NCBI RefSeq assembly: GCF_021917145.1
Contig: NC_061078.1
Coordinates: 9,747,604-9,811,603 of the forward strand
Origin: Hypomesus transpacificus
Taxonomy: Eukaryota; Chordata; Actinopteri; Osmeriformes; Osmeridae
Direction of reading: 5' to 3'
Length of the DNA: 64,000 nt
Below, one piece after another: positions 34,240-37,200 of this stretch. The position numbers and the translations under genes were made by a program. Under the pieces are notes generated by a model. It did no database searches and was not told the origin of the DNA. It saw nothing but the letters and a program-made list of their open reading frames with translations. Numbering within the stretch: the stretch's first letter is position 1; each line of letters opens with the position of its first letter.

Positions 34240-37200
34240 TTAAATAAAGAAGTGAATGAACAAAATAGCTACTCCAATATTAAGTAAAATGACCATGACC
34301 ACCAGAATAGAGCTGGAGCCCTATGGAAGAGAAAAGAGAAGAGAAAAGTTAGTTTACGTTATCTAATTTGTTATAGATAATGCTGTCTAATAAAGTAAAA
34401 GCAACCGCACATCAGTTTACTTCCACTTGAGAATTTGAATGGAATCCACAACATTGGTTAACTGGTTAACGTTAGTATCATTCAATCATTATTTACCATA
34501 ACCATCATGAGCAGAGCATGCAGTTCACTCACTGAGTTTGATTTAAGGGTGAGATGCTCCCCGTCCTGCTCCAGTGTAATAGGCTGGGACTTTAGGGGTG
34601 GGGAGAGGGTGAGGTCCCTGTGCAGTGGCCACTCCTCCAACTCTGCTCCCACATTCAGACTGTCCAGCATCTGTACAGAGTCCATGGATCCCTCCTTCAC
34701 TGGCCGCAGGCCACGGGGCCGCACCCTGTTGCCTTTAGGGCCTGGAGATTCCTGGCCCAGCCCCTGGGGCATCTGGGAAATGGAGTCCGGGGGCTGAAGT
34801 CTCATATCTACTGTGTAGTCACCTAACTTCTCGTCCTCCTGCTCTGTGAGGCGTGAGTGGGCGGGGCTCCACCTAAGGGTGCTTTCAGCAGTCCAGACTC
34901 CTGGGTGGCCGTCAAGCCCTTGGTCAGCCAAGGCATGCTCGCTAAGCTTGTGGTTGGAGGAGATGTGGTGCTTTGTGTGGTGGTTGGAGTATACATGCTC
35001 TGGTGGGTGGTGGTTGGAATACACATGCTCTCGAGGGTTGTAATTGGAGGAGACATGGTCCTTTGGGTTGTGATTGGAGCAGGTATAATCATGGGTCTTG
35101 TGATTGGAAGAAGCATGCTCAGAAGTCTTGTGATTGGACATGTTATGCTCCAAGGCCTTGTGATTGGATAAAATGTGCACCTGCGGCTTGTAATTGGAAG
35201 AGGCATGCTCGCAGGCCTTGTGATTTGTGGAAGTATGATCCCATGTTTTGTGATTGGAGGACGTGTACTCTCTCGACTTGTGATTGGATGACACATGCTT
35301 AGAGGACTTTTGGTTGGATGAGGAATGCTCCCAGGACCTGTAGGAGGAAGTGTGCTCCCGGGACTTGTGATTGGCTGAAGTTTTCTCCCTTGGCTTGTGA
35401 TTGGAGGGGGCTTGTTCATGGCCATTAACCTGGCCTTCTTGTTCTTCCAAGAGGGAAGGTGTGGTGGAGCGACTACTACCCCCTCGATCCGGGTACATAT
35501 CCTCTGTCCAGTTGTTAGCCCCGGCCCTGGGGAGGTCCATGCCCCGGCCCTCCACCAGTACTTGGATCTCAGCTCCGCCCTGGTCGTCCACGGCACTCTG
35601 GCGCATGAAGCAGGCGTTTCTGGGGCGGTGGGAGTGCTTGGATGGACTGTGGGGAGGTGAGGGCGGGATGCTCAACACGGGGCTGAGATCAGGTGTTATT
35701 ACAGGTGGCGTGGTGTCGGGCGTGCACAGCTCGGGACTGTCTGTTCCTGTGGAGATGACCTCGTGGTCTTTGTCCTTGATGTCCTGGCGCTTGGGCCTCT
35801 GACACTCGAGTCCTAACAAACAGTTGGAGAACAGAACTCAATGAGGTGTTTTGGCATCCACCACAAGTACATGAGAAGTACACAGTGATTTCAGTGTTAG
35901 CAGAAACATGTACAACAGAAGGAGAATAAGAATGCATTCTTGACAGGCTGAGTCAAACCGAGACAGTCACAGTTAGCTGTGTCGGCGAGGATTTAAAGAT
36001 ATAGTTCACTTGAATTCTACAATGTTTATAGGATTATCCTCTTCAAATCCTACATGGCTAATATGGTGAGTATTACTGACAGGCAAAACTAACGTACATG
36101 GTTGTTCGTTACTATTAAAGATAAGCATGCTTATTCTTTGCTTATACTCAAGGTACAAAGGTCGGATTTATGCTTTAAAATCACAGATCAATTGTATAAT
36201 GAGAGCAAGTACTTTTGTATTTCTCTTTATTTAAGTAGACTGAATTATAAAAATGTTACATGTTGCCTGCATAACATGTAATTGTAGGGGGTTTAATATA
36301 CCAAAACTATTCCCCTATGTTTAAAGGGATAGGGGTAAACTGAACAGTGTATTAACATTAACCAAAGTATGCCTATACCAATGGAATTACAGTTATTACC
36401 CTTACTTATCAACATATGACTAGCAATGCAACAGTAAGTTATACAATGAAGTAAAGGCTCCTTCCAGAAACTCCAGATTTTAGCATGGCAGGGTGACTAC
36501 AACTGTGTGTAAAGTAGTTAACTGTTGATTTACTTAACAGCAAATATTCTAAGTGTTCCAGATCCCCCCTTTGTAATCATGTAACAAGTTTGGTGCCATT
36601 TCACATGCAATCAAGAGACACATGGAGTGTAGCAAGTAACTACCCTTTAACTTGGATTTGTTACCATATTTAGCAACTTAATTGCTTGGTGACAATATTA
36701 ATCAACCACCAATGAATAGGTTTAACTATGGTCTGTCAGTTCAGCTTAGCTCTCCTCATTGCACACCCTTTGACGTGAAAAATGAAAACTTCCCATCCCT
36801 TGTTCCCTGTCTTCACACTCTCTTACATGAATACACATACACTCCCACACACTCACTCTCACACTCATACTGGAACCATTTTATTTTAGCCTGGCTGCCA
36901 GCCCAACTTAGCCCCGCCCACAAAAGAATTTGGTTGAACGGAAGCTGTTCGGACTAATGAAATTGTCAGGGCGGGCTTTATACGATGATGGACAGATGAT
37001 CAACAGTAACGTAATCAACCACATCACCAAAGAGCGCTTGGGTTGAATTCGTTTTCAACAAACAACATATTACGTTGCTCTGATTGGTTGTAGGTCTATC
37101 CAATTTAGCGAAGAGGCATTTTTTTCCTGGTTCAGTTGAAACACGCCCCATACTCAAAGCCCGGTTTTAGACTCATTTTCTGACCAGAATTATGAGTATG

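What the first reader, a model, noticed from the sequence alone, without database searches (positions are those of the whole stretch)
34925..35405. Histidine-rich decapeptide array inside junctophilin 3
Sixteen in-frame units of NHKxxEHxSS type expand the divergent region of jph3 by about 160 residues. Each unit puts His at positions 2 and usually 7 with an acidic residue beside it, giving around thirty regularly spaced His. Units have diverged widely at other positions while frame, Asn-His and Ser ends persist, which suggests selection rather than a fresh slippage product. Junctophilin sits where plasma membrane meets the calcium store, so a periodic His/acid/Ser array could bind metal ions, sense pH or be phosphorylated. 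That function is inference. I know of no described array like this in junctophilins.
Basis: partly seen in the sequence, partly recalled or inferred. Interest (0 to 1): 0.75.

Follow-up and report, generated by a model that had tools for sequence, protein, structure and literature searches.

The report
Histidine repeat array in fish junctophilin
A probable fish gene for a protein that ties the cell surface to the internal calcium store carries an old, in-frame 16-unit histidine-rich repeat which evolution seems to have kept at the protein level; it most likely makes a long flexible, positively charged spacer, but what that does is untested.

Summary
Exon 4 of a five-exon jph3 model (884 aa, four GT-AG introns, one stop, at the end) holds 16 in-frame units with consensus N-H-K-[STPA]-x-[ED]-H-x-S-S. 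There are 29 His in 156 residues against 20 in the other 728. Units are on average 63% alike in DNA. Synonymous differences are high (pS 0.61, pN 0.31), omega is 0.38-0.46 on 10 trees, and codon position 2 varies less than position 3 in 10 of 10 columns. So this is an aged minisatellite under protein-level constraint. The best-scoring arrays at 11 other loci of the same genome have 89-99% alike units. By a human JPH3 sequence recalled from memory, a short ancestral segment was amplified. The array lies between the helical region and the RyR-binding/ER-anchor end, and AlphaFold2 shows no fold. I read it as a disordered, basic spacer in the ER-plasma-membrane tether. Metal or pH sensing is not excluded; the array holds no CK2-type site and three R-x-x-S/T sites. 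No other fish could be compared, and no transcript or population data were available. Interest moderate.

The parts
34935..35402 (-). Array of 16 decapeptide units (156 aa, residues 569-724 of the model), consensus NHK[STPA]x[ED]HxSS
34533..35812 (-). jph3 exon 4 (1280 nt), encoding the divergent region; acceptor tttgttag|GACTC, donor CTCA|gtgagt
   Evidence: skipping it would shift the frame before the transmembrane exon (1280 mod 3 = 2)
41298..41679 (-). jph3 exon 1, start [17 protein letters not shown] motifs
37958..38744 (-). jph3 exon 2, MORN motifs and joining region
37249..37373 (-). jph3 exon 3, putative helical region
34240..34320 (-). jph3 exon 5, C-terminal transmembrane anchor ([26 protein letters not shown]) and stop
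35373..35402 (-). Unit 1 ([10 protein letters not shown]), which best matches the recalled single-copy human segment NPKPRERRTE
   Evidence: human letters recalled
34533..34934 (-). Rest of exon 4 after the array; holds the counterpart of the human RyR1-binding stretch, weakly conserved
   Evidence: human letters recalled; PMC8046434 (passages)

Best explanation
[quoted passage not shown] The copies have since diverged in place under purifying selection on the protein. The product is a 156-residue disordered, basic, His/Ser/Asn-rich linker between the plasma-membrane and CaV-binding half of the tether and its RyR-binding and ER-anchored end. I propose it acts as a flexible spacer that lengthens the reach of the tether, and as a weak multivalent surface (an aromatic His/Tyr every 5 residues, net positive charge rising with acidity) for acidic partners or lipids in the junction. 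Shown: the array, frame, gene model, divergence relative to other arrays fetched here, and protein-level constraint. Inferred: disorder in the cell, spacer and electrostatic roles.
For: Codon positions 1/2/3 differ between units by 0.373/0.236/0.507, with position 2 below position 3 in 10 of 10 columns; permutation p 0.0007 within codons and 0.011 over all columns. Omega is 0.38-0.46 and LRT 9.4-14.2 against omega 1 on 10 trees, 8 of them random. Neutral simulations reach the position-3 minus position-2 value in 2, 4 and 5 of 300 runs under three rate models, and aromatics (His/Tyr/Phe/Trp) at 30 of 32 lattice sites in 0, 2 and 4 of 300. At codon column 4, positions 1 and 3 are scrambled (0.72, 0.71) while position 2 stays C (0.12), giving Ser/Pro/Thr/Ala in 15 of 16. 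Mean unit identity is 0.63, best pair 0.83, with weak decay over distance. The best-scoring arrays at 11 other loci of this genome are 89-99% alike. AlphaFold2 of 207 aa: pLDDT 51.7, pTM 0.12, no helix of 4 or strand of 3 residues. Modelled charge is +11.7 at pH 7.2 and +26.4 at 6.2, against -14.7 for the rest of exon 4 at 7.2. In human JPH3 the divergent domain recruits RyRs and the helical region is needed for CaV2.1 binding (PMC8046434 passages; PMC12017855 abstract).
Against: Only ten codon columns and one genome; units are not independent and may have exchanged sequence. Selection may act only on 'stay polar and disordered', with no specific task. The structure prediction had a single sequence, so low confidence is weak evidence of disorder. 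The position of the human RyR site on this protein rests on recalled human letters, and that site is weakly conserved here, so RyR binding in this species is itself uncertain. The comparison arrays were not a random sample, and some second-ranked arrays at those loci are only 70-86% alike. Tissue and expression are unknown.
Confidence: 0.55

Rival explanations
1. Tolerated, nearly neutral minisatellite: it arose by slippage or unequal exchange in a region that accepts length change, and selection removes only stops and frameshifts.
For: The same genome yields many 15- to 36-base arrays. A second sense frame is also stop-free over the array. [quoted passage not shown]
Against: Omega 0.38-0.46 on 10 trees; position 2 below position 3 in 10 of 10 columns; the position bias was reached in at most 5 of 300 neutral runs that already avoided stops.
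Confidence: 0.22
2. Metal-binding or pH-sensing array: His at every fifth residue binds Zn/Cu or protonates in acid, changing the linker and so the tether.
For: His at 25 and Tyr at 5 of 32 lattice positions; as many aromatics arose in 0, 2 and 4 of 300 neutral runs. Modelled net charge rises from about +12 to +26 between pH 7.2 and 6.2 with His pK 6.5.
Against: 5 of the 7 lattice positions without His are Tyr, a poor Zn ligand (general knowledge). His spacing is 5, not the close pairs of classic sites (general knowledge). The array is net basic, with 13 acidic residues, which does not favour calcium binding. Cytosolic free Zn is low (general knowledge).
Confidence: 0.12
3. DNA- or RNA-level element: the repeated core TCCAATCACAAG (a CCAAT box every 30 bases) is what is conserved.
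For: CCAAT occurs 10 times in the array plus 6 preceding bases; 0 of 5000 codon redraws reach that. The Ser-10 codon is TCC in 13 of 13 against 8 of 17 at four other columns, p 0.003.
Against: The redraw null ignores common descent. C is already the third base in 58 of 92 fourfold codons before A elsewhere in the CDS. Codon-pattern conservation over the whole unit is not explained.
Confidence: 0.05
4. Phosphorylation array regulated by kinases.
For: 31 Ser and 10 Thr in 156 residues.
Against: No CK2-type site, no S/T-P, 3 R-x-x-S/T sites; none of these motifs recurs in every unit.
Confidence: 0.03

Closest known systems
Human JPH3 (neuronal junctophilin 3)
   Same: Same order of MORN, joining, helical, divergent and transmembrane parts. 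106 of 127 exon-1 and 197 of 253 aligned exon-2 residues identical to a recalled human sequence.
   Different: By the recalled sequence, human has one NPKPRERRTE segment and a short SHHRASNHS stretch where this gene has a 156-aa array; 748 against 884 aa.
Drosophila junctophilin (1054 aa)
   Different: Not compared by sequence here; no His decapeptide array is mentioned in the passages seen.
[quoted passage not shown]
   Same: His-rich tandem repeats in a protein of the calcium-release machinery (PMC6171002, passages).
   Different: HRC: 9 nearly identical 29-residue repeats with HRHRGH and 10-11 acidic residues, in the SR (same passages). Here 10-residue, much diverged, net basic units in a part that is cytosolic in junctophilins.
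Coding-type minisatellites of the same genome (e.g. L013, VTQPP units)
   Same: Period a multiple of 3, open frame, low-complexity product.
   Different: L013 units are 89% alike; the jph3 units are 63% alike on average and show codon-level constraint. Whether L013 is a gene was not tested.

Membership tests
Junctophilin | N-terminal MORN motifs split by a joining region (6 + 2) | tested here: met
   Pfam MORN in exon 1 (4 stretches) and exon 2 (2 stretches); best PDB hits junctophilin-1 and -2. The full count of 8 was not resolved.
Junctophilin | C-terminal transmembrane anchor | tested here: met
   Exon 5 encodes a hydrophobic terminus, 60-61% identical to those at two other junctophilin loci of this genome.
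Junctophilin | Spans the ER-plasma-membrane junction in cells | not testable with these tools
   Needs expression.
Junctophilin 3 (isoform) | Closer to JPH3 than to JPH1, JPH2, JPH4 | tested here: inconclusive
   Aligns throughout with recalled human JPH3. Two other loci of this genome, which I call jph1-like and jph2-like from recalled C-termini, are 64% and 57% identical in exon 2. JPH4 not compared; human letters recalled.
JPH3 RyR1-binding segment (human 653-680) | Conserved 28-residue stretch | tested here: inconclusive
   Only the last part is recognisable by local alignment to recalled letters; the published alignment covers six tetrapods (PMC8046434, legend).
Neutral minisatellite | No codon-position bias or omega below 1 between units | tested here: not met
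HRC-type His/acid calcium buffer | Long acidic runs beside His clusters, net acidic | tested here: not met
   13 acidic against 20 Lys/Arg and 29 His; net charge positive at every pH computed, 6.2-7.6.

The most novel reading that the evidence does not exclude
The array is an adaptive, lineage-specific sensor: evenly spaced His/Tyr residues let acid pulses or Zn release at active synapses change the stickiness or length of the ER-plasma-membrane tether, tuning CaV-RyR coupling in neurons.
Probability: 0.1. Interest if true: 0.75.

Novelty: new variant of a known kind. Interest (0 to 1): 0.4.

Why it matters
The divergent region has low homology between junctophilins (PMC8934682, passages), yet in human JPH3 it decides which ryanodine receptors are recruited (PMC8046434, passages). 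An array that adds 156 residues before that end, kept at the protein level, is a natural experiment on tether length and charge. Counting units across related fishes would make the question directly testable.

Tried and rejected
Relatives: scans of viral contigs and of genome contigs with the exon-4 protein found none (9 and 16 pattern matches, none confirmed), as expected for a vertebrate gene. Pfam gave nothing and PDB one hit at E 0.11 for exon 4. Own-genome searches with the flank before and the flank after the array return only this gene (next E 0.33; none). They also missed the exon 4 of the jph1-like and jph2-like genes, so a much diverged copy could be missed too. The array-bearing query gave 72 matches, this gene and 71 more at E 7e-11 or weaker, with 98 of 468 candidates scored; of these I read the longest open frames of L012, L013, L018, L019 and L020, which are other low-complexity arrays.

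Rejected: young slippage product (unit divergence); exon-4 skipping as a way to lose the array (frame shift); a hidden intron over the whole array (crude consensus scan: two donor-like sites at 7 of 9, three acceptor-like sites, no pair that would remove the whole array); phosphorylation array. Considered and set aside: a three-unit higher-order repeat (excess 0.025, p 0.03); CCAAT cluster.

Results against my reading: a second sense frame is open over the array; dependence among units; a single-sequence fold; the permutation p over all columns is only 0.011; 12 of 16 units match the recalled human stretch SHHRASNHS better than NPKPRERRTE, so the seed is not settled.

Full report
What is there. 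The stretch 34935-35402 encodes, on the minus strand, 16 tandem units of ten residues (unit 2 has nine; the last is counted to its seventh), in frame with a 451-codon open frame. Consensus: N-H-K-[STPA]-x-[ED]-H-x-S-S. The array has 29 His in 156 residues; the other 728 residues of the protein have 20 (the call prints 729 because it counts the stop sign). Lag-10 self-identity is far above shuffles.

The gene. Five exons with GT-AG introns on the minus strand (41298-41679, 37958-38744, 37249-37373, 34533-35812, 34240-34320) join into 2655 nt with one stop, at the end: 884 aa. The best PDB match is junctophilin-1 for exon 1 (1.4e-71) and exon 2 (3.1e-60); both carry Pfam MORN. The window lies on a 15.8-Mb contig of a 437-Mb assembly. 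A small vertebrate genome with several junctophilin genes suggests a fish, but no tool named the organism. Two other loci with exons 1-3 and a transmembrane exon, which I call jph1-like (C10) and jph2-like (C18) from recalled C-termini, showed no similar array when compared with the jph3 protein and when their open frames of 110 codons or more were read. So 1 of 3 junctophilin genes with recognisable later exons carries it. A second jph3-like exon 1 on C14 has a one-base frame break and a 500-N gap about 1.5 kb further on; no other exon of it was found in the 60 kb fetched or in the whole-genome searches.

Origin. Unit 1 with its flank scores 33 against QPGNPKPRERRTE; 7 of 10000 shuffles of a 110-residue human stretch reach that. 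But 12 of the 16 units score best against SHHRASNHS instead. So a short segment here was probably amplified, and which part was the seed is open. This rests on recalled letters and is a lead, not a test.

Age and selection. Units share 63% of DNA positions on average (range 47-83%), and similarity falls only weakly with distance (Mantel r -0.22, p 0.02). NG86 proportions are pS 0.61 and pN 0.31. Codon position 2 is less variable than position 3 in 10 of 10 columns (p 0.0007 within codons, 0.011 over all columns). Codon models give omega 0.43 on the ML tree and 0.38-0.46 over 10 trees, LRT 9.4-14.2 against omega 1 with kappa fixed at 2.0 or 2.5. Neutral simulations with stops avoided, matched in diversity and with three rate models, reach the observed position bias in 2, 4 and 5 of 300 runs; without stop avoidance a mean of 5.3-5.6 stops arise and 4, 5 and 7 of 150 runs have none. 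The first simulation was too divergent (0.49 against 0.37) and is superseded. I put 11 other loci of this genome through TRF, leaving out five that overlap them (L004-L006, L015, L022): the best-scoring array of all 11 is 89-99% alike, against 65-78% for the two rows shown for jph3 and 63-80% for its four rows. Some second-ranked arrays at those loci are 70-86% alike. These loci were brought in by similarity to exon 4, or (L002, L003) to an off-frame reading of the array, so they are not a random sample.

What it probably does. AlphaFold2 on 207 residues (no alignment) gives no structure. The array is basic (+11.7 at pH 7.2 with His pK 6.5), the rest of exon 4 acidic (-14.7). In human JPH3 the divergent domain is needed for recruiting RyRs, with a proposed RyR1 site at 653-680 (PMC8046434, passages), and CaV2.1-loop binding needs the helical domain and not the divergent one (PMC12017855, abstract). 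Placed on this protein, the array sits between the two. A long, charged, disordered spacer is therefore the simplest reading; metal or pH sensing would need direct tests.

Novelty. Library searches for junctophilin with tandem repeat, histidine-rich, teleost, and jph3a/jph3b/decapeptide terms listed no such array (listings of 20 of 32, 20 of 24, 15 of 20 and 2 of 2 papers, not the papers). Passages of PMC9527923 on junctophilins mention none either. Drosophila JPH is known to have an extra segment in its divergent region (PMC8934682, passages).

Noticed in passing
L029, G000:C14 about 16440976-16441360, minus strand: A second jph3-like exon 1 (about 81% identical) with a one-base frame break in a G run and a 500-N assembly gap about 1.5 kb further on; no other exon of this copy was found. 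PMC8934682 (passages) says teleosts are believed to have lost one JPH3 copy.
   Followed up: partly
window 34533-34934, minus strand: The counterpart of the human RyR1-binding stretch (653-680) is weakly conserved; only its last part aligns to recalled letters, while the published alignment shows six tetrapods (legend of PMC8046434 Figure 12).
   Followed up: partly
L002, L003, L012-L014, L016-L021: This genome has many minisatellites; the best-scoring ones at these 11 loci have periods of 15-36 bases and 89-99% alike units, several in long open frames.
   Followed up: partly
L013 (G000:C5): A 155-copy, 15-base array encoding VTQPP-like units inside a Thr/Ser/Pro-rich open frame of more than 1100 codons, mucin-like by appearance.
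   Followed up: no
window 34935-35408, minus strand: Ten CCAAT motifs, nearly all 30 or 60 bases apart, with TCC in 13 of 13 Ser codons at unit position 10.
   Followed up: partly
window 34826-35671, minus strand: A second sense frame of 282 codons is open right through the array; probably a by-product of its composition.
   Followed up: no
window 34935-35402: Units three (or a multiple of three) apart are slightly more alike than others (excess 0.025, p 0.03): a hint of an older 90-base block duplication.
   Followed up: no
window 28258-30069 (-), 50200-50541 (+), 58325-58978 and 60873-61280 (-), 21742-22206 (-): Neighbouring coding stretches: C2H2 zinc fingers, Sir2 family, 7-TM receptor pieces, protein kinase piece (Pfam; the kinase hit is below its curated cut-off).
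   Followed up: no
L026, G000:C10 near 9578165, minus strand, upstream of the jph1-like gene: A 358-codon open frame that looks like a Tc1/mariner transposase (by eye, no search run).
   Followed up: no
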